Source: Pacificimonas aurantium | Lineage (GTDB): Bacteria > Pseudomonadota > Alphaproteobacteria > Sphingomonadales > Sphingomonadaceae | Reading direction: 5' to 3' | Assembly (NCBI RefSeq): GCF_020092905.1 | Contig: NZ_JAGSGB010000001.1 | Coordinates: 1,302,001 to 1,366,000 of the forward strand | Length of the DNA: 64,000 nucleotides | Shown here: positions 53,854 to 62,902 of the stretch, piece after piece | Position numbering within the stretch: the first letter of the stretch is position 1 | Layout of the letters: each line of letters begins with the position of its first letter | The notes under the pieces: generated by a model | Database searches by the model: none | Seen by the model: the letters and a program-made list of their open reading frames with translations, nothing else | What the model was told of the DNA's origin: nothing | Made by a program: the position numbers and the translations under genes

Positions 53854-54210
53854 CTAGTGCGCCTGTGCGCCCTTCAGGTGATAGCGGCCGTCATGTCCGC
53901 GTTCGAACAGCTCTGCAAAGGCGGGGTGCATCGGTTCGCCGCCCTCATCGTCGGTCAGCAGGTTCTGCTGGCTGACATAGGCCACGTAGGCCTCCTGACC
54001 ATTATCGGCCAGCAGGTGGTAATAGGGCTGCTCCTTTGCCGGGCGGATATCTTCGGGGATTGCCTCATACCACTCGTCGGTATTCGCGAATTCCGGGTCC
54101 ACATCGAATATGATCCCGCGGAAGGGAAAATATTTGTGTTTCACGACATCGCCGATGCCGAAGGAGGCGGACCGCATCGCCCCGCCCATCTTTTCGTCAT
54201 CAAGCACCAT
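53854..54210 (-). CDS. hspQ: Heat shock protein HspQ (YccV-like, hemimethylated-DNA-binding)
   Basis: A 118-residue protein with the YccV core FGIGDVVKHKYFPFRGIIFDVDPEF and YYHLLADNGQEAYVAYVSQQNL. HspQ is a small specificity factor/substrate of Lon in enterobacteria. I chose the ATG at 54210 because GGAGA lies 5 bases before it; in-frame ATG at 54222 is possible. It is divergent from the glycosyltransferase gene. Confidence 0.9.
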   Translation of the reverse strand: MVLDDEKMGGAMRSASFGIGDVVKHKYFPFRGIIFDVDPEFANTDEWYEAIPEDIRPAKEQPYYHLLADNGQEAYVAYVSQQNLLTDDEGGEPMHPAFAELFERGHDGRYHLKGAQAH

Positions 54211-54318
54211 TGCGCTCTCCATATCCCGGCTCTTATGCGCTCCCGCATTATGTAGTGAGGTTGGGGCGCACTGCAAAATCTCGTGCGGTGCCCGCGGTCG
54301 TCAAAGGGTCGTGAAGCC

Positions 54319-55137
54319 ATGAATTATAGCGGGGAAGAACCTGGTTCATTGCGGTGGTCGGCGGTAATTCCCGTCTACAACGAACGCGACTACCTGCCGC
54401 GCACGCTCGCTTCTCTTGCCGACCAGGAACAGCCCGTGCGCATCCTCGTCGTCGACAACGGGTCGACGGACGGCTGTATCGAGGATGCCCGCGCGCTCGC
54501 CGCCGCGCGCGATCTCGAAATCGAATTCCTCGAAGAGGAGGCTCCCGGCCAGGTGCATGCGCTGAAACGGGGCATCGACGCCGCCGAGACCGAATTCGTC
54601 GCGATCTGCGACGCCGACACCTGGTACCCGCCGCACTATCTGACGCGCGCCGAAGAGCTGTTCGACGAGGGCGGCCGAAGCCGGGTCGCGCTGGGCGCGC
54701 TGCTGATGCCGGAGCGGTCTGGCGCTCTCGCCGACTGGTGGGCCGCGAACCGGCGGCTGGCTGCAGCGCGCCTGATGCCGCGGCAGAACCACACCAGCGG
54801 AGCGGCGCAGCTGTTCCGCACGAGCGCGCTCAAGGCTGCGGGCGGCTATGACGCGCGGCGCTGGCCCTATGTTCTGAAGGACCACGAGTTGATGGACCGC
54901 GTGCTGCAGCTGGGCGGCCAGACCTATGACCGCGACCTGTGGTGCATCAGTTCGGAACGGCGGGGCGACCGCAGGAAGGTGCGCTGGACGCTGTCCGAGC
55001 GGCTGCTTTACCACGTCATGCCCTTTTCGAAGAAGCGCTGGTTCTTCCACCGCTTCATGGCGCGCCGCTTCGAGCGGCGCGGGCAGAAGGACATCGTCCT
55101 TCGCGAGCAGAGCTGGAACGAGGCGGGGCAGGGCTGA
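54319..55137 (+). CDS. Family 2 glycosyltransferase
   Basis: A 272-residue GT2 with nucleotide-sugar site VIPVYNERDYLPRTL, VVDNGSTDG and the metal-binding DxD in CDADTWYP. The C-terminal half has DHELMDRVLQLGG where an acidic base is expected. No membrane segment is obvious, so it is probably a peripheral enzyme. It is followed after 3 bases by a polytopic membrane protein and then a DCC thioredoxin-like protein, suggesting a three-gene operon. Donor and acceptor unknown. Confidence 0.87.
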   Translation: MNYSGEEPGSLRWSAVIPVYNERDYLPRTLASLADQEQPVRILVVDNGSTDGCIEDARALAAARDLEIEFLEEEAPGQVHALKRGIDAAETEFVAICDADTWYPPHYLTRAEELFDEGGRSRVALGALLMPERSGALADWWAANRRLAAARLMPRQNHTSGAAQLFRTSALKAAGGYDARRWPYVLKDHELMDRVLQLGGQTYDRDLWCISSERRGDRRKVRWTLSERLLYHVMPFSKKRWFFHRFMARRFERRGQKDIVLREQSWNEAGQG

Positions 55138-55140
55138 ACC

Positions 55141-56799
55141 ATGACCATGCCGGTCAGCGCCCATGCAGCTGCCCGAACGGTCGAACCCCATGGGGAAGCC
55201 GGCGGACTTGCCGGTCCGCTCATGCTGCTCCTTGCGGCGCTTCTCGGTTTCACGCTGCTGAAGCAGGGTACCGATTTCATTGCCGCCGAGCGGCCCGGAC
55301 TGATCCTCGTCTGGTGCGGGGTCATCGCGCTGCTGACCGGCGCTTTTCTGCCGGTCGGCTATGGTGCGCTGCCTGCCTACGCCCGCACGGCGCTGCGGGG
55401 AGGGGCGGTGTTCCTGGCGCTCTACTTCGCTCTGGAGCCGTTCGCGGTTCCCTATGTGACCCTGCCGCTCGATCATCCGGCGGTGCTGTTCCACGGCCAT
55501 GTGCGCTGGGCGGCAATCCCGCTGGCCATGCTTGGGGTCTGGCGGCCGTCGGCCGTCTTCGGCGCTGCCATGCTGCTCTGGATGACGCGCGGCCTGCACA
55601 GCGAGCTCACCGGCTTCTATTTCTCCGATCTCGACATCCGCAACGTTGCGGAGATTCTCACCTTCTGGGGAATCGGTTTCTGCTTCATTGCGCTGGCGGC
55701 CAGGCTTCCGCTGTCCGCAATGCGGCTCGGCCTGACCGGGCCGGAGCGGCTGCGGGCGGCGATCATGGTCCTGACGGCAGGGATCGGCGCGCATCTCGCC
55801 AACTATTTCTGGTCCGGGCTTGCAAAGCTGTGGATGGACGGGGGGATCCTCTCCTGGATCCTGGACAACCGCCTGGCCGACGGCATTCCCGGCGCGCTGG
55901 AAAAGGGCACGCTGCCCTACGCAGCTTCGCCGGAGCTGGTGCAACTCGGCTATGACGCTTTGATCCTGCTACAGGTGCCGGTGAATCTGGCAGCCTTCGG
56001 CCTGCAGATATTTGCCATTGCCGCACCGCTGAGGAAGAAATGGCTGCTGCTGGCGACGATCGGCTACGATATCTTCCACGTCGCCGTCTGGCTCGCGCTC
56101 GGCCTCCTTTTCTGGAAGTGGATCGCGCTCAACTTCATCATAACGGCGATCCTGGTAGCCATGCCGGAGACCGCCTGGTCGAGGACGGCGCGGGCGACGA
56201 CGATGAGCTTCGTCGTGCTCGGCATGCTCTTGTTCCGGACCGCGACCCTTGCCTGGTATGATTCGCCCGGGTTCACCTCGCCCTATTTCGTCGCGCGGCT
56301 GGCGGACGGACGCGAGATGCGCATTCCCAATGCCTTTTTCCGCTCCTCCTCCTACCAGGTCTCGCAAGGGCGGCTCTGGTGGCCCGCAGAAGCCGGCCAC
56401 TTCCGCCATTCCATCTGGGGTTCGGTGCTCAGTTACGACGACCTCGACGCCGGGCGGCGCTGCGAAGCGCGGGAGATCGCTCTCGATGCCGAGCCGCTTT
56501 ACGGCCCGCCGGAGCGCCTCGCCGAATTCGTGCGCGCCTATCACCGGCAGATGCAGCCGCGTTTGGACGAGGACGGGCGGCTCGCCTATTATCTGGTGCC
56601 GCACCATCACGTGCCCAGCCCCTTTGTGGCCGACCCCTTCTACGCGGTCGACAAGCGGCGCATCGACACTTACCTCTTTCGCCTCGACAGCGTGTGCCTG
56701 GGTATCGAGGACGGTCGGCTGACCCGGCGCGTCCTGAAGCGGACCGAACTCCCGCTTTACGATCCGCAGACGGACGAACTGCTGACCGGCGCCGACTGA
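55141..56799 (+). CDS. Polytopic membrane protein, HTTM-like, with C-terminal soluble domain
   Basis: A 552-residue protein with roughly ten membrane segments in residues ~25-375, followed by a ~175-residue soluble domain. The segment HLANYFWSGLAKLWMDGG and YDIFHVAVWLALGLLFWKWIALNF resemble HTTM (vitamin-K-carboxylase-like transmembrane) proteins. Partnering with a DCC gene, common for HTTM, supports this. The C-terminal domain (RMRIPNAFFRSSSYQVSQGR..., PHHHVPSPF) is not familiar to me. I give no function. Confidence 0.6.
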   Translation: MTMPVSAHAAARTVEPHGEAGGLAGPLMLLLAALLGFTLLKQGTDFIAAERPGLILVWCGVIALLTGAFLPVGYGALPAYARTALRGGAVFLALYFALEPFAVPYVTLPLDHPAVLFHGHVRWAAIPLAMLGVWRPSAVFGAAMLLWMTRGLHSELTGFYFSDLDIRNVAEILTFWGIGFCFIALAARLPLSAMRLGLTGPERLRAAIMVLTAGIGAHLANYFWSGLAKLWMDGGILSWILDNRLADGIPGALEKGTLPYAASPELVQLGYDALILLQVPVNLAAFGLQIFAIAAPLRKKWLLLATIGYDIFHVAVWLALGLLFWKWIALNFIITAILVAMPETAWSRTARATTMSFVVLGMLLFRTATLAWYDSPGFTSPYFVARLADGREMRIPNAFFRSSSYQVSQGRLWWPAEAGHFRHSIWGSVLSYDDLDAGRRCEAREIALDAEPLYGPPERLAEFVRAYHRQMQPRLDEDGRLAYYLVPHHHVPSPFVADPFYAVDKRRIDTYLFRLDSVCLGIEDGRLTRRVLKRTELPLYDPQTDELLTGAD

Positions 56800-56824
56800 C
56801 GCCGGCCCGACCGAAGGGACGGCG

Positions 56825-57265
56825 ATGGTGGACAGGAATGCAGCCGCAGCTGGATCGGACAGGGACCCGATCTACATCGTCTATGACGGCGACTGCCCCT
56901 TTTGCACCGCCTATGTGAAGATGGCCCGTTTGCAGAAGGCGGCCGGCCCCGTGGAGCTGCTGGACGCCCGTCAGCCCCATCCGGTCGTCGACGAGGTCGT
57001 CTCGCAGGGGTTCGATCTGGACGAGGGCATGGCGATGAAGATCGGGGGCGACATCCTGCACGGGGACGAGGTGGTCCACCGCATATCCCTCATGACGACG
57101 CCGAATCCGGGCATGAACGGTCTTGCCGCGAAGATCCTGAAGGACCGGCGCCGCGCCCGGCTGCTCTATCCGTGGCTGCGGCGCGGACGTAACCTGGCCC
57201 TGACCCTGCTGGGCAAGCGGCGTATCCGCACGGCCGGCGCCAAGGGGGCGGGCTCGCAGACCTGA
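56825..57265 (+). CDS. DCC1-like thiol-disulfide oxidoreductase family protein (DUF393)
   Basis: A 146-residue thioredoxin-like protein with the family motif YDGDCPFC (CPFC is the redox pair) near residue 21 and the late WLRRGRNLAL segment. DCC proteins are often next to or fused with HTTM proteins, which matches the neighbour 25 bases upstream. It ends the three-gene cluster. Confidence 0.88.
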   Translation: MVDRNAAAAGSDRDPIYIVYDGDCPFCTAYVKMARLQKAAGPVELLDARQPHPVVDEVVSQGFDLDEGMAMKIGGDILHGDEVVHRISLMTTPNPGMNGLAAKILKDRRRARLLYPWLRRGRNLALTLLGKRRIRTAGAKGAGSQT

Positions 57266-57421: not shown

Positions 57422-57511
<90 letters not shown>

Positions 57512-57799: not shown

Positions 57800-58573
57800 C
57801 TAGGCGCGTCCAGTCGGCACGACCACAGGCGTTCCAGACAGTTCCTCCAGCCGCGCACGGATGCCGTAGACCGTCCGGAACCGCTCCGGCGTTAGCACCG
57901 CATGCGGTGGCCCCTCGGCGACCAGTTCCCCTTCATGCAGCAGCAACAACCGGTCGCAATAGCGGGCCGCCATGCCGAGATCGTGAAGAATCGCGGCGAC
58001 CAGCATGCCTCCGTCCGCGCGCTGTTTCAGAAGGTTCATGACGTCGAGCTGGTGGGCCGGGTCGAGCGCCGCAAGCGGTTCATCGACGATCATTGCCCCT
58101 GCTTCGACAGCGAGCGCGCAAGCCAGAAGTGCCCGCGCCTGCTCGCCGCCGGACAGGGTCGTGGCGTCGCGGCTGCGCAAATGCGCGATGTTGGCGGCCG
58201 TCAGCGCAGCTTCGATGGCGGCGCGGTCCCTTTCCGACAGCTTCGAGAATGGCGCAAGATGCGGCAGGCGGCCCAGCGCGACCAGGCGCTCGACGCTGAG
58301 CGGCCAGTGCAGCGACTGCCCCTGCGCGAGATAGGCGATCTTGCGTGCCACGTCGGCGCGCGACAGCTGCCTACTGTCGCGGCCATCAATGAGGATGCGA
58401 CCGCTTGCCGGCGTCAGCAGACCGAGGATGGCGCGCGCCAGCGTCGACTTCCCCGCGCCGTTCGGACCGACGATGCCGACAAATTCACCCGGGTAGAGGG
58501 CTAGGTCGATGTTTCGCAGGATCGGCGTTCGATCTTGCGAGACGTGAACGCCCGATAGCTCGATCCGTGGCAT
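57800..58573 (-). CDS. btuD: Vitamin B12 ABC transporter ATP-binding protein
   Basis: A 257-residue ATPase of the FecE/BtuD type: Walker A GPNGAGKST, signature LSGGEQARALLACALA, Walker B GAMIVDEPLAALDP, H-loop HDLGMA. It starts at the ATG directly after the permease stop. Assignment to cobalamin rests on the neighbouring riboswitch-controlled receptor; on sequence alone a siderophore or heme importer is possible. Confidence 0.88.
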   Translation of the reverse strand: MPRIELSGVHVSQDRTPILRNIDLALYPGEFVGIVGPNGAGKSTLARAILGLLTPASGRILIDGRDSRQLSRADVARKIAYLAQGQSLHWPLSVERLVALGRLPHLAPFSKLSERDRAAIEAALTAANIAHLRSRDATTLSGGEQARALLACALAVEAGAMIVDEPLAALDPAHQLDVMNLLKQRADGGMLVAAILHDLGMAARYCDRLLLLHEGELVAEGPPHAVLTPERFRTVYGIRARLEELSGTPVVVPTGRA

Positions 58574-59572
58574 TTACCAGACCCTCCGGGCGCGCAGCAG
58601 ATAAACGAGGAAAACGGGCACGCCCAAAAAGGCGGTGACGACCCCCAGCTTCAGCTCGTTCGTGGTAGGCAGAAGGCGTACGAAAAGGTCGGCGAGCGTC
58701 AGAAGGCATGCGCCGGCAAAGGCAGAGGGGAGAAGCGCTGCCGACGGGCTTTTGTCCGTCAGGGGCCGTACCATGTGGGGCACGATCAGCCCGACGAAGC
58801 CGATCGCGCCGGAGACCGCGACGGCGCCGCCAACCCCCAGCGCGGTTCCGGTCAGGATGCGAAGGCGCAGGCGTTTGAGGTCGACGCCGAGCGCCTTGGC
58901 GCCGTCCTCGCCCAGCGTCAGGCCGTCGAGAGCGCGGCCATTCCAAAGCAGCAGCGCCATCCCGGCGACGATCGGCGGCAGCGCCATGAAAAGATCACCG
59001 AAAGATCGGTCCTCCAGGCTGCCGAGAAGCCAGGTCATGATCTCCAGTGCGGCAAAGGGATTTGACGACAGGTTGAGGGCGAGGCTGATGCCCGCGCTCG
59101 CGGCCGTGGCGATCGCTATCCCCGCCAGAATGAGGGTGAGGGGGCTCTCGCCCCTGCCGCTGAGCAGGAACAGCAGTCCGAGCGCGAGAAGCGCAGCGGC
59201 CACTGCGAGCACCGGGACCGCGAAGGCCGACAGCGAGGCAAAGCCGAAATAGAGCGCCGTGACGGCACCGAGAGCCGCGGCGTTGGAGGCGCCGAGGACC
59301 CCGGGTTCGGCCAGCGGGTTCCTGAGATATCCCTGTAACGCCGCGCCGCTGAGGCCGAGTATGGCGCCGACGAGAAGACCGAGAAGCGCGCGCGGCAGGC
59401 GCAATTCGAACAGGATAGCGCGAATGACTGGGTCGCCGCTGCCGTCCAGCGCGTGTCGCCACAGAAGCGTCGGCGGAATGTCCGCTGTCCCGAAGCTGAG
59501 CGATAGAAAGGCGCACAGGACTGCTAGCGCCGCAAGCCCGGCGGACAGGTGCCTGGTCCAGCGACGTCTCAT
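58574..59572 (-). CDS. btuC: Vitamin B12 ABC transporter permease (FecCD/BtuC family)
   Basis: A 332-residue permease with about ten membrane segments. The family blocks RLPRALLGLLVGAILGLSGAALQGYLRNPLAEPGVLG and GAIGFVGLIVPHMVR are intact. I used the ATG at 59572 (MRRRWTRHLSAG); the frame is open 19 codons further. It is divergent from btuF across 80 bases, so the two may share a control region. Confidence 0.9.
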   Translation of the reverse strand: MRRRWTRHLSAGLAALAVLCAFLSLSFGTADIPPTLLWRHALDGSGDPVIRAILFELRLPRALLGLLVGAILGLSGAALQGYLRNPLAEPGVLGASNAAALGAVTALYFGFASLSAFAVPVLAVAAALLALGLLFLLSGRGESPLTLILAGIAIATAASAGISLALNLSSNPFAALEIMTWLLGSLEDRSFGDLFMALPPIVAGMALLLWNGRALDGLTLGEDGAKALGVDLKRLRLRILTGTALGVGGAVAVSGAIGFVGLIVPHMVRPLTDKSPSAALLPSAFAGACLLTLADLFVRLLPTTNELKLGVVTAFLGVPVFLVYLLRARRVW

Positions 59573-59652
59573 CGACCTGCCGAACCGGAATGGCGACGCG
59601 ACATTGCCAAGGCCGGGCCGCTGCGGCACGGAGCGGCGCGGAGGAGTTCCGA

Positions 59653-60495
59653 ATGCCGACTGCCCGCCTTATCCTTCTGCTCTGCGCCTGTGCCGCGGCG
59701 GCTTTCGGCGCTGCCCGGGCGGCGGCGGCACCGGAGCGGATACTCTCGCTCAACCTCTGCGCCGACCAGTATCTGCTGGCGCTCGCCGACCCCTCCCAGA
59801 TCGCGGCTCTCACCAGCTTTGCGACGGACCCGCACATGTCGGCGGCGGCGGGGCAGGCCGAGGCATTCGCTTCGACTGGCGGAAGCATCGAAGAGGTGCT
59901 CGCCATCCGCCCCGATCTTGTGATCGCTACGCCCTTTTCGCGCGCGGAACGCGGAAGGCTTATGCAAAAGTTCGGAGTCGAGACCGTCAGCCTCCAGCCG
60001 GCGAACAGCTTTCTCGAGGTGGAGGACCGAATACGCGAAGTCGGCCAGCTCGTCGGCCGGTCGGCCCGCGCCGAGCTCCTGGTTGCAGACATGCGCGCCT
60101 CGCTCGCGGCGCTCCCCCGCAACCCCGGCCAGGACCGGACCGCCGCCTATTATCAGCGCCGCGGCTATCTGACCGGCGGCGAGACGCTGGTCGACGACCT
60201 GATGCAGCGGGCGGGCCTTCGCAACTTGGCGACAGAGCTCGGACGACCGGCCCTGTCGCGCCTGTCGCTGGAGGAGATCGCTCTCGCGCGGCCGGACTTC
60301 CTGATCGTCGAGGAGGCCACGCTGGACGCGCCCGACCGCGGCGCTGCGATGCTGCGCCATCCGCTGCTCGAGGACATTCCGCGGCTCGTCCTGCCGCAAG
60401 CGTGGACGGTGTGCGGCGGGCCGGCCTACGTCAGGGCCGCCGCTGCGCTTGCAGAGCAGCTTCGGCGGGCCGACGCGGACCCGCCAGTTCGCTGA
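59653..60495 (+). CDS. btuF: Periplasmic cobalamin-binding protein (BtuF-like)
   Basis: A 280-residue helical-backbone binding protein with a signal peptide (MPTARLILLLCACAAAAFGAARAAA). The start of the mature part, PERILSLNLCADQYLLALADPSQIAALT, and LSLEEIALARPDFLIVEEA are typical of this ABC substrate-binding family. Unlike btuC, btuD and btuB it is on the plus strand; its stop is 20 bases from the btuB stop. Confidence 0.88.
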   Translation: MPTARLILLLCACAAAAFGAARAAAAPERILSLNLCADQYLLALADPSQIAALTSFATDPHMSAAAGQAEAFASTGGSIEEVLAIRPDLVIATPFSRAERGRLMQKFGVETVSLQPANSFLEVEDRIREVGQLVGRSARAELLVADMRASLAALPRNPGQDRTAAYYQRRGYLTGGETLVDDLMQRAGLRNLATELGRPALSRLSLEEIALARPDFLIVEEATLDAPDRGAAMLRHPLLEDIPRLVLPQAWTVCGGPAYVRAAAALAEQLRRADADPPVR

Positions 60496-60515
60496 CCGGA
60501 TCCGCGCCGACTGCA

Positions 60516-62387
60516 TCAGAAATTCACCCTGACGCCGCCATAGGCACTTCGGCCAAGAGCATTCTTGCCGAATTGGACCTGGTATTCATTGTCGAAGAGA
60601 TTCGTCACACGGCCGAACAGTTCGACTTCATCGGTCAGGGGCAATGACCCGAGCAGGTCGGTAACGACAAACCCGTCGGTTTCCCCGCCATAGGCGGCGG
60701 CGTTGTCGCTGCTGAACCGGACCCGGGCAGTGACGGAAAAACGGTCGCGAGGCGAAACGGTGAGAGCGGTCGTGCCGCTATGTTCCGGCCGGCCGATATC
60801 GCTATAGTCGCCCGTGTCGTCGCTGGCTTCCTCTGCGCTGACATAGGTGTAGCTCTGCGTCAGGGTCAGTCCTTCCAGGGGCTGCAGTGCGAAGGCCAGT
60901 TCGATGCCCGAGCTACGCGTCCGGCCTAGCTGCGCATAGCCACCAAATGGTGGCCGGGTGCCGTCGAACACGATCTCGTTGGTCACCTTCGTGAAGAAGA
61001 CGCTCGCTTGCGCCGTCAGGGACCCGAAGTCGAGGTCGATGCCGACATCTCCGCCTTCGCTCGTTTCGACCTCCAGCTCGGCATTGCCGTAGCTGGGATC
61101 GAACAACTGGTAGAGGCCGGGCGCCTTTGCACCAGTGCCGAAACTGCCGCGGAGCTTAGCGGTGCCGCCGGCCACGTCGGCGATCAGATAGGCGGCTGTC
61201 GCGCGGTAGGTATCATAGCTACCGAAGCGGCTGTTGTCGTCCAGCCGGGCGGCGCCCGTCAGGGTCAGCCCCTCGGCGGGGAACAGCGCCACTTCGCCGT
61301 AGACCGACTTCGTGTCGATCGAGGCGTCGAACTCGCCGGAAAACAGCGTAACCTGCTCGGTACGCTCCTCTTCGTAATTGGCGCCTGCCGCAAACTGGAG
61401 CAGGTCGCTCGCCGCGTAAGCGAGGTCCAGCGACAGGACATTCTTCGTGCCTTCGTAAACATCGCCATCGGGGCTGTTATACTGACCGAAATAGACGCGT
61501 TCGACATCGTAGCGGCTGGCTGTCACATCGGCGGAGAAGCTGTCGTCGTCGCTGGCGAAGCGCCCCGTCGCTGCCACGGCGAATTCTTCCACCTCAGCCG
61601 TATCCGAACTGTCGGACGCCGTGTTGTCGAGATCGGTGTCGGCATCCAGCCAGTAGCCGATCAGCTGCAGCTCGAGATTCGGTGAAACTTCCAGTCCCGC
61701 GCGGCCACTGAAGCCGTAGCGGGAATAGGCATCGTCCTCGGCCTCCGTTCCAGGCGCGGGATCGGTAAGCGAGGGGCCGTCATGCTGATAGCCGGTGGCC
61801 GTCACGCGAACGTCCAGCGGCCCGGTTTTGCCGAGGATCGACGCCCCTCCGTTCCATGTGTCGTAACTGCCATACTCGGCTTCCGCCGCGACATCGAAGC
61901 CGTCGCGCTCGGCCCGCTTCGTGACGATGTTGACGACGCCGCCGATCGCGTCGGAGCCGTAGAGGGAACTCTGGTTGCCGCGCAGGATTTCTATCCGGTC
62001 GATGTCCTGGGTAATCAGATGGTCGACCTGATACTGGGTGCTGATCACGCTCGGGTCACCGAGCTCGATGCCGTCGACCAGATACAGGACCTGGTCGTTG
62101 GCCGAGCCGCGGATGCTGACACTTGTCATGTCGCCCGGCCGGTCGGTCGTCACCTGGACCCCCGGTACGTCCTGCAGGAGGGTATTGAGAAAGATGTACT
62201 GGCCGCGCTCGATCTCCGCGGCCTTCACGACGGTATAGGCACTGCCCACCTCGCGCGGCTCCAGCGGCAGGCGGCTTGCGGTGATAACGATCTCGTCCCT
62301 GTCGGCATCCAGCGGGGCGCTGGTCTGCGCAAGGGCCGGCGAGCAGAGGCCCAGGGCCAGGGTAGTGAGGGATAGTCTTGTCTTCAC
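60516..62387 (-). CDS. btuB: TonB-dependent vitamin B12 receptor BtuB
   Basis: A 623-residue outer-membrane receptor. GTG at 62387 follows GGGAG by 6 bases; the product has a signal peptide (LSLTTLALGLCSPALAQ), TonB box DEIVITAS, plug (TLLQDVPGVQV, SIRGSANDQVLYLVDGIELGDPS, RIEILRGNQSSLYGSDAIGGVVNIVTK) and barrel ending GGVRVNF. The cobalamin riboswitch in its leader makes B12 (or a related corrinoid) the likely ligand. Confidence 0.94.
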   Translation of the reverse strand: MKTRLSLTTLALGLCSPALAQTSAPLDADRDEIVITASRLPLEPREVGSAYTVVKAAEIERGQYIFLNTLLQDVPGVQVTTDRPGDMTSVSIRGSANDQVLYLVDGIELGDPSVISTQYQVDHLITQDIDRIEILRGNQSSLYGSDAIGGVVNIVTKRAERDGFDVAAEAEYGSYDTWNGGASILGKTGPLDVRVTATGYQHDGPSLTDPAPGTEAEDDAYSRYGFSGRAGLEVSPNLELQLIGYWLDADTDLDNTASDSSDTAEVEEFAVAATGRFASDDDSFSADVTASRYDVERVYFGQYNSPDGDVYEGTKNVLSLDLAYAASDLLQFAAGANYEEERTEQVTLFSGEFDASIDTKSVYGEVALFPAEGLTLTGAARLDDNSRFGSYDTYRATAAYLIADVAGGTAKLRGSFGTGAKAPGLYQLFDPSYGNAELEVETSEGGDVGIDLDFGSLTAQASVFFTKVTNEIVFDGTRPPFGGYAQLGRTRSSGIELAFALQPLEGLTLTQSYTYVSAEEASDDTGDYSDIGRPEHSGTTALTVSPRDRFSVTARVRFSSDNAAAYGGETDGFVVTDLLGSLPLTDEVELFGRVTNLFDNEYQVQFGKNALGRSAYGGVRVNF

Positions 62388-62591
62388 GTCCAACTCCCGG
62401 GCGCCGCGCAACGGTCACCGCGTCCGGGTCGGTCGTTTCGTCGGGCGAAACGAGAGGCGCTCCGCAGCGGAACGGGCGCCCGGCGCCCGCCGCGGAAGGC
62501 CGCGGCAACCCGGCCGCGCTCAGTTTCGTCGCTCAGACGGAAGTTCACCGTGCCCCGGCCAATCCCTGGACCGCGGCAAGAGCGACCGGAC
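62388..62591 (-). promoter_or_regulatory. Long leader between the riboswitch and btuB
   Basis: About 200 GC-rich bases separate the aptamer from the btuB start. A perfect 7-bp hairpin (CGTTTCG, loop CCCGA, CGAAACG; 62434-62452) lies ~45 bases before the GTG, and other GC-rich pairings are possible. This probably is or contains the expression platform; whether it stops transcription or masks the ribosome site cannot be decided by eye. Confidence 0.45.
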
Positions 62592-62788
62592 GCCGGCAGG
62601 TCTCCTGGCTTGCGGGTCTCGGCGCTGATGCTCGGCCTTCCCAGGTTTCCCCAGTGGCTGTCCGGCCCGTCGGAGCCGAAACATGGCATTGCGCTCACCG
62701 CTCACAGTTGCAGGGACAGCCGCGGATTCAGGAGGTGTCAGCCTCCTTCACCGCATTCCCGTTTAAGCCTCTCGTCGAGGCACCGGCG
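62592..62788 (-). ncRNA. Cobalamin riboswitch
   Basis: Reading the minus strand: GGTGCC at the 5' side, GGGAATGCGGTGAA, a TCCGCGGCTGTCCCTGCAACTGTG block, GCCACTG, CCTGGGAAGGC, and the B12 box AGCCAGGAGACCTGCC at ~62613-62596. Order and spacing fit the class-I adenosylcobalamin aptamer. It should lower btuB expression when B12 is plentiful. Boundaries are approximate. Confidence 0.95.
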
Positions 62789-62902
62789 CGATCAGTCGAT
62801 CCGGGATTTCCCGGATCGGGGCGGCGCATATCGCAAACCGCGCCGGACGCAAACGAATAATAGCGAGGGGGAGTGGATCGGTATTACGCCCCGGCGAGCG
62901 GA

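What the first reader, a model, noticed from the sequence alone, without database searches (positions are those of the whole stretch)
54319..57265. Glycosyltransferase, HTTM-like membrane protein and DCC thiol protein in one operon
Three genes with gaps of 3 and 25 bases combine a GT2 enzyme, a ~10-segment membrane protein with an unfamiliar 175-residue soluble C-terminal domain, and a CPFC thioredoxin-like DCC protein. HTTM-DCC pairing is known from other genomes but without a settled function. The added glycosyltransferase suggests a membrane-linked modification that needs thiol redox chemistry and sugar transfer. This is the most likely poorly described system in the window.
Basis: inference. 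Interest (0 to 1): 0.6.

Follow-up and report, generated by a model that had tools for sequence, protein, structure and literature searches.

The report
Distant vitamin-K-carboxylase-fold membrane protein with redox partner
Three side-by-side genes in an alphaproteobacterium encode a sugar-transferring enzyme, a membrane protein that is a very distant cousin of the vitamin-K carboxylase fold and is missed by standard databases, and a small thiol protein that accompanies it in nearly every genome that has it; this is a compact unit of unknown function that probably modifies something on the cell surface.

Summary
GT2 (54319-55137), a 552-aa membrane protein (55141-56799) and a CPFC DCC protein (56825-57265) lie in one direction with gaps of 3 and 25 bases. 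The membrane protein matches no Pfam, NCBIfam, PHROG or PDB sequence. It belongs to a rare, patchy alphaproteobacterial family. A profile of 21 members aligns with a profile of diverse HTTM proteins (hhalign 78-92%, score 53 against at most 20 in 100 shuffles). The alignment places invariant K229 on the HTTM lysine that is the catalytic base (K218) of human gamma-glutamyl carboxylase. Its C-terminal domain (two invariant cysteines, an HH pair) matches no known domain. DCC accompanies it in 23 of 25 database loci. A glycosyltransferase lies nearby in 17 of 25, spread over all four clades, but of different kinds. An orthologous GT2 lies upstream only in four sphingomonad loci. Three congeners lack the cassette and have an empty hspQ/tRNA-Ser junction. 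Best reading: a divergent HTTM-fold membrane enzyme with a periplasmic-facing lysine centre and a dedicated thiol partner, modifying an envelope glycan or glycolipid. Fold, pairing and site are supported; substrate and chemistry are inferred. It is a new variant of the known HTTM-DCC kind.

The parts
54319..55137 (+). Family 2 glycosyltransferase, 272 aa, no membrane helix, DAD motif at the usual place
   Evidence: PF00535 2e-25; orthologues 56-60% identical upstream of the membrane-protein gene in L015-L018, and more distant ones elsewhere without it
55141..56799 (+). Divergent HTTM-fold membrane protein, 552 aa, 11 predicted membrane helices plus C-terminal domain
   Evidence: no Pfam/NCBIfam/PHROG/PDB sequence match; 21-member alignment A4; model pLDDT 89.2; HTTM profile match
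55210..56232 (+). Membrane part, residues 24-364; positive-inside pattern suggests N-in, C-out
   Evidence: helices; K+R per loop over 20 relatives
55804..55827 (+). YFWSGLAK motif, residues 222-229; K229 aligns with the HTTM lysine (GGCX K218)
   Evidence: Y222, F223, S225, K229 invariant in 21 of 21; register; role of K218 in PMC12589487
56068..56079 (+). DIFH motif, residues 310-313; H313 aligns with the HTTM histidine, followed by GLLFWKWIALN
   Evidence: D310, H313, F324, W327, N331 invariant in 21 of 21; HTTM register
56233..56796 (+). C-terminal domain, residues 365-552, no known relative; invariant C441, H488, H489, C519
   Evidence: own model pLDDT 80.8; no PDB fold match; no match to other HTTM C-terminal domains or DUF5819
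56461..56463 (+). Codon of invariant C441
   Evidence: 21 of 21
56695..56697 (+). Codon of invariant C519
   Evidence: 21 of 21
56825..57265 (+). DCC thiol-disulfide oxidoreductase-like protein, 146 aa; the only DCC gene found in this genome
   Evidence: PF04134 8.9e-9; single genomic hit; DGxCPxC motif in all relatives checked
56894..56905 (+). CPFC redox motif
   Evidence: direct reading; C24 and C27 invariant in A3
53854..54213 (-). Left flank: hspQ-like gene, next to tRNA-Ser in congeners that lack the cassette
57422..57511 (+). Right flank: tRNA-Ser (CGA)

Best explanation
The cassette encodes a divergent HTTM-fold membrane enzyme (552 aa) with a dedicated DCC thiol protein, next to a glycosyltransferase. 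SHOWN by sequence: distant HTTM homology of the core (lysine helix, cap, His helix, Phe/Trp helix); near-obligate pairing with DCC; gain or loss as one block at the hspQ/tRNA-Ser site; repeated association with glycosyltransferase and envelope-glycan genes. INFERRED: the active centre (K229, H313, cap residues W239/N243) opens to the periplasm as in GGCX; K229 acts as a general base on a lipid-embedded or lipid-linked substrate; GT2 and other GTs build that substrate, a surface glycan or glycolipid; the invariant C441/C519 and HH pair in the periplasmic domain form a disulfide or metal site that shapes the substrate end; cytosolic DCC keeps the enzyme or its electron donor in the working thiol state.
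For: HTTM: hhalign of the membrane part against 20 diverse HTTM sequences gives 89.8% and score 53; 100 block-shuffled controls reach at most 20.2, reversed profiles at most 19.1, nine unrelated membrane families at most 22.1; without L057, found with our own profile, 78-88%. GGCX (9bur) has the highest Foldseek probability among the PDB hits listed (0.72), though E is 0.14. GGCX A214-x3-K218 spacing (PMC12589487) equals S225-x3-K229. DCC lies beside the membrane-protein gene in 22 of 25 loci, usually overlapping it, and 3.7 kb away in one more. Supported clades agree between membrane-protein and DCC trees. Glycosyltransferases are nearby in all four clades: GT2 orthologue in L015-L018, PF13704 type in L020, L035 and Bradyrhizobium, PF00535 type in L023 and L038; flippase-type or sulfotransferase genes in L022, L023, L031, L035, L038. 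Empty site in three congeners. Topology from positive-inside counts.
Against: HTTM profile probability stays below the customary 95% and Foldseek below significance. Eight of 25 loci show no GT nearby (L019, L021, L024, L028, L030, L034, L037, L039), and the GT matches of L031 and L035 are below the Pfam cut-off. L034 keeps the membrane protein without DCC. This GT2 has orthologues without TM-DCC. Known HTTM enzymes act on proteins or peptides, not glycans. The genome has no detectable VKOR, so a vitamin-K cycle of the animal type is unlikely. The residue before the histidine (F312 here), which by register matches the GGCX quinone-pocket residue F286, is F, M or L in this family.
Confidence: 0.45

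Rival explanations
1. The HTTM-like protein with DCC modifies a secreted protein or peptide, as GGCX and the HTTM proteins of linaridin clusters do; glycosyltransferases are nearby only because these genes sit in envelope or secretion islands.
For: Known HTTM proteins act on polypeptides (GGCX, PMC12589487; linaridin crdG, PMC9927463). Bradyrhizobium loci carry an RTX-like protein (1760-1779 aa in L014 and L022) two genes away; sphingomonad loci carry a DUF2141 protein.
Against: No protein substrate gene is shared by the clades; the window itself has no DUF2141 or RTX gene in the cassette; several unrelated GT kinds recur instead.
Confidence: 0.25
2. The membrane protein with DCC is a general thiol or quinone redox device of the inner membrane, not tied to a glycan; the GT2 is an unrelated neighbour carried on the same block.
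For: DCC is the constant partner; eight loci lack GT genes; L021 and L024 lie next to iron-sulfur and large-subunit oxidoreductase-like genes and L021 next to a cytochrome-like gene (read from sequence only); two invariant cysteines in the C-terminal domain.
Against: GT or envelope genes recur in all four clades; in the window the GT2 gene ends 3 bases before the membrane-protein gene; the cassette is rare and patchy, unlike general redox genes.
Confidence: 0.2
3. The 552-aa protein is a lipid or glycolipid transporter, and the HTTM motif resemblance is convergence.
For: Eleven predicted helices; association with flippase-type genes in Bradyrhizobium, L023 and L038.
Against: Profile match in the correct register well above all controls; no match to flippase-type profiles; invariant polar residues K, H, D, N, W typical of an active site.
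Confidence: 0.08

Closest known systems
HTTM / vitamin-K-dependent gamma-carboxylase fold (Pfam PF05090)
   Same: Order of core helices, YF-x-[AS]-G-x-x-K motif, histidine helix followed by G-x-x-F; likely lumen/periplasm-facing centre; soluble domain after the membrane part
   Different: Not detected by PF05090; lacks the W at K+5; C-terminal domain unrelated; more helices before the core; no VKOR in the genome
HTTM-DCC fusion proteins (L040-L043 of sphingomonads, L069 of Thermus; L070 of Virgibacillus without the C-terminal part)
   Same: HTTM core plus DCC in one system; in L040-L043 and L069 then a membrane helix and a soluble domain with two cysteines; L040 and the DCC-less relative L044 lie next to glycosyltransferase genes
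   Different: DCC is a separate gene here; no detectable profile similarity between the soluble domains
207-aa HTTM-core protein plus DCC in the capsule cluster of Novosphingobium plasmid pLA5 (L057)
   Same: HTTM-core protein directly before DCC inside a polysaccharide cluster; weak match to our profile, E 0.0095
   Different: Only the core; no C-terminal domain
HTTM proteins of linaridin RiPP clusters
   Same: HTTM membrane protein with small partners
   Different: Assumed to act in peptide maturation together with LinL; DCC and GT2 are not part of the description read (PMC9927463)
DCC1-like (DUF393) family PF04134
   Same: DGxCPxC motif, full-length match over the cut-off
   Different: Nothing unusual; function of the family not settled

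Membership tests
HTTM (PF05090) superfamily | Match to the curated Pfam model | tested here: not met
   0 of 21 members, E up to 5; no PF05090 hit in the genome
HTTM (PF05090) superfamily | Profile-profile similarity over the core, above controls | tested here: met
   78-92%, score 45-56; all controls at most 22.1; failed with a 5-sequence HTTM profile
HTTM (PF05090) superfamily | Y/F-x-x-[AS]-G-x-x-K helix and histidine helix in order | tested here: met
   invariant in 21 of 21, except G226 (18 of 21)
HTTM (PF05090) superfamily | Fold similarity to GGCX | tested here: inconclusive
   9bur probability 0.72, E 0.14, TM-score 0.30
Vitamin-K-dependent carboxylase proper | Vitamin-K hydroquinone supply (VKOR) in the genome | tested here: not met
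   no PF07884 hit
Vitamin-K-dependent carboxylase proper | Glu carboxylation and epoxidation | not testable with these tools
   needs biochemistry
DCC1-like PF04134 | Model match over cut-off and D-x-x-C-x-x-C-type motif | tested here: met
   37 bits against cut-off 27.8; DGDCPFC
Glycosyltransferase family 2 | PF00535 match and DxD | tested here: met
   90 bits against 23.3; DAD in CDADTWYP
Conserved GT2-HTTM-DCC triplet | Orthologous GT2 upstream in other genomes | tested here: met
   L015-L018, with DUF2141 or other genes between GT2 and the membrane-protein gene; absent in other clades
DUF5819 / HTTM C-terminal domains | Profile similarity of the soluble domain | tested here: not met
   hhalign under 1%

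The most novel reading that the evidence does not exclude
A branch of the HTTM fold that has left peptide chemistry: a lysine-base membrane enzyme that, without vitamin K, modifies an envelope polysaccharide or glycolipid at the outer face of the inner membrane, with a cytosolic DCC thiol protein as near-obligate redox partner.
Probability: 0.3. Interest if true: 0.8.

Novelty: new variant of a known kind. Interest (0 to 1): 0.5.

Why it matters
HTTM-DCC systems occur in Alphaproteobacteria, Thermus, Bacillota and Actinomycetota without a settled role, and no paper in the held library joins the two terms. This cassette is a compact three-gene case, with the only DCC gene of its genome, congeners that lack it and relatives in named strains, so the role of DCC and of the conserved lysine can be tested directly. 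It also extends the vitamin-K carboxylase fold to a family that standard domain libraries miss and offers an orphan soluble domain with two invariant cysteines for structure work.

Tried and rejected
Direct family searches of the 552-aa protein (Pfam, NCBIfam, PHROGs, PDB sequences): nothing. hhalign against five sphingomonad HTTM proteins only: no signal; the broader HTTM profile solved this. PDB hits of profiles A4 and A6 to antibody light chains rejected as chance: short, weak, a very redundant group. Foldseek against viral models: a Yasminevirus protein named desaturase at probability 0.99 but E 0.11 and TM-score 0.32; not used. C-terminal domain as a relative of other HTTM C-terminal domains or DUF5819: rejected. 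Viral and plasmid homologues of the membrane protein: none. Genomic-island insertion into the tRNA 3' end: not favoured, since the cassette lies 5' of the tRNA and has ordinary GC, 0.664 against 0.65 for the window. Promoter and terminator scans gave nothing usable. My working label flippase-like (LPGf) for the extra sphingomonad membrane gene is not backed by Pfam.

Full report
OBSERVATION. GT2 and DCC match PF00535 and PF04134 clearly; the 552-aa protein matches nothing in Pfam, NCBIfam, PHROGs or PDB sequences. The genome has one copy of the membrane protein and one DCC gene, and no PF05090 (HTTM) protein.

DISTRIBUTION. The 552-aa family is rare: 3 of 60 relatives, 4 of 398 genomes sampled in the order, 2 of 398 in the phylum sample, by the tools' own tallies, which include the window's genome. 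A scan of about 85,000 species genomes gave 25 loci, all Alphaproteobacteria; no viral or plasmid relatives. This scan searched conserved peptides and can miss distant members. It includes eight near-identical Bradyrhizobium loci and re-finds four loci already fetched from the genome searches, so the 25 are not 25 independent events. The tree shows four groups: the sphingomonad group with the window; L031/L035/L038; Bradyrhizobium; and L020/L021/L023/L024/L030.

GENE PARTNERS. DCC is present in 23 of the 25 loci (not L034, nor L037, where only part of the membrane protein matches). It is immediately adjacent in 22, most often with overlapping ORFs, and 3.7 kb away in L031. Well-supported clades agree between the membrane-protein and DCC trees. 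A glycosyltransferase is nearby in 17 of 25: orthologous GT2 in L015-L018; a different GT in L020, L023, L038 and, below the Pfam cut-off, L031 and L035; and a PF13704-type GT downstream of DCC in the eight Bradyrhizobium loci and also in L014, which lies outside the 25, in a block with a flippase-type protein and an RTX-like protein. Sulfotransferase-type genes lie within about 5 kb in L023, L031, L035 and L038, two of the four below the Pfam cut-off. The GT kinds differ, so the association probably arose several times; but orthologues of the window GT2 also occur in genomes without the membrane protein, so GT2 is not obligate.

The L015-L018 clusters add a GT4 protein whose best NCBIfam match is N-acetylglucosaminyl phosphatidylglycerol synthase (about 152 bits, far below the cut-off of 480), a membrane protein without Pfam match and a DUF2141 protein. 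In L016 all lie in one direction as GT2, membrane protein, DUF2141, GT4, 552-aa relative, DCC. The window genome keeps GT4 and the membrane protein elsewhere, at G000:C5:28828-30893. This hints at a glycolipid, but weakly.

EMPTY SITE. In three congeners hspQ is followed directly, within 205-254 bases, by tRNA-Ser(CGA); in the window the three genes lie exactly between them. So the three genes came or went as one block. GC content is ordinary.

HTTM HOMOLOGY. A narrow HTTM profile gave no signal. With 20 diverse HTTM sequences the membrane part scores 53 (probability 89.8%, P 1.8e-6) and the core 92.5%; without L057, which was found with our own profile, 78-88%. One hundred block-shuffled HTTM profiles reach at most 20.2, reversed profiles 19.1, and nine unrelated membrane families 22.1. 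The alignment joins Y222-F223-x-S225-G-x-x-K229 to the HTTM lysine helix and H313 to the HTTM histidine. In human GGCX, K218 is the base that deprotonates vitamin K hydroquinone and A214 lines its tail tunnel (PMC12589487); the A214-K218 spacing equals S225-K229. These residues of the window protein are invariant in 21 of 21 members, G226 apart. Foldseek ranks GGCX (9bur) second by E-value among PDB hits and first by probability, 0.72, but E is 0.14 and TM-score 0.30. I take HTTM membership of the core as likely, about 0.88, not proven.

TOPOLOGY AND C-TERMINAL DOMAIN. The model has 11 membrane-length helices; K and R are more frequent in the loops that would be cytosolic if N is inside, which places the C-terminal domain and the cap after K229 in the periplasm, as the cap and soluble domain are luminal in GGCX. 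The C-terminal domain has C441, H488, H489 and C519 in all 21 members; it matches no other HTTM soluble domain or DUF5819 and no PDB fold. In the HTTM-DCC fusions L040-L043 one hydrophobic helix separates DCC from the soluble domain, so DCC and that domain should lie on opposite sides. DCC here has no evident signal peptide (read from sequence). It is therefore unlikely that DCC acts directly on C441/C519.

MECHANISM. Shown: fold kinship (likely), pairing, block gain or loss, GT association. Inferred: a periplasm-facing lysine centre acting on a GT-built envelope glycan or glycolipid, with a cytosolic thiol partner. A vitamin-K cycle of the animal kind is unlikely: no VKOR was found; that alphaproteobacteria use ubiquinone is general knowledge, not tested here. 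The strongest rival is a protein or peptide substrate, since the HTTM enzymes described in the papers read act on polypeptides.

VERDICT. Real, conserved, poorly described; a new variant of the HTTM-DCC kind rather than a new kind. Interest 0.5.

Noticed in passing
window 57800-62800: Cobalamin riboswitch (RF00174, 104 bits, 62578-62800 -) upstream of a TonB-receptor-like gene (60516-62411), with an ABC ATPase, a permease and a substrate-binding-like gene beyond it: probably an ordinary B12 uptake locus (gene roles read from sequence).
   Followed up: partly
L057 3306-4366 (Novosphingobium pentaromativorans plasmid pLA5): A 207-aa protein annotated only as hypothetical, with HTTM-core motifs, directly before DCC inside a capsule gene cluster; no Pfam match.
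   Followed up: partly
L040, L044: Canonical HTTM proteins of other sphingomonads lie next to glycosyltransferase genes (PF13641; PF13528), so the GT link may hold for HTTM systems more widely.
   Followed up: partly
L052, L053, L055, L063: Short (about 230 aa) alphaproteobacterial HTTM proteins; in L055 and L063 directly preceded by a small protein of about 140-150 aa, an arrangement reminiscent of linaridin LinL/HTTM pairs.
   Followed up: no
L014, L022, L025-L027, L029, L032, L033, L036: Conserved Bradyrhizobium block: RTX-like protein (about 1760-1780 aa in L014 and L022), flippase-type protein, the 552-aa relative, DCC, PF13704 glycosyltransferase.
   Followed up: partly
L021 12410-15172 and L024 11888-14701: The membrane-protein/DCC pair is followed by a small iron-sulfur-like and a large oxidoreductase-like subunit gene; in L021 a cytochrome-like gene precedes it (read from sequence).
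   Followed up: no
L010/L019 (Hankyongella ginsenosidimutans): The membrane-protein gene is split over three reading frames; sequencing error or pseudogene not distinguished.
   Followed up: no
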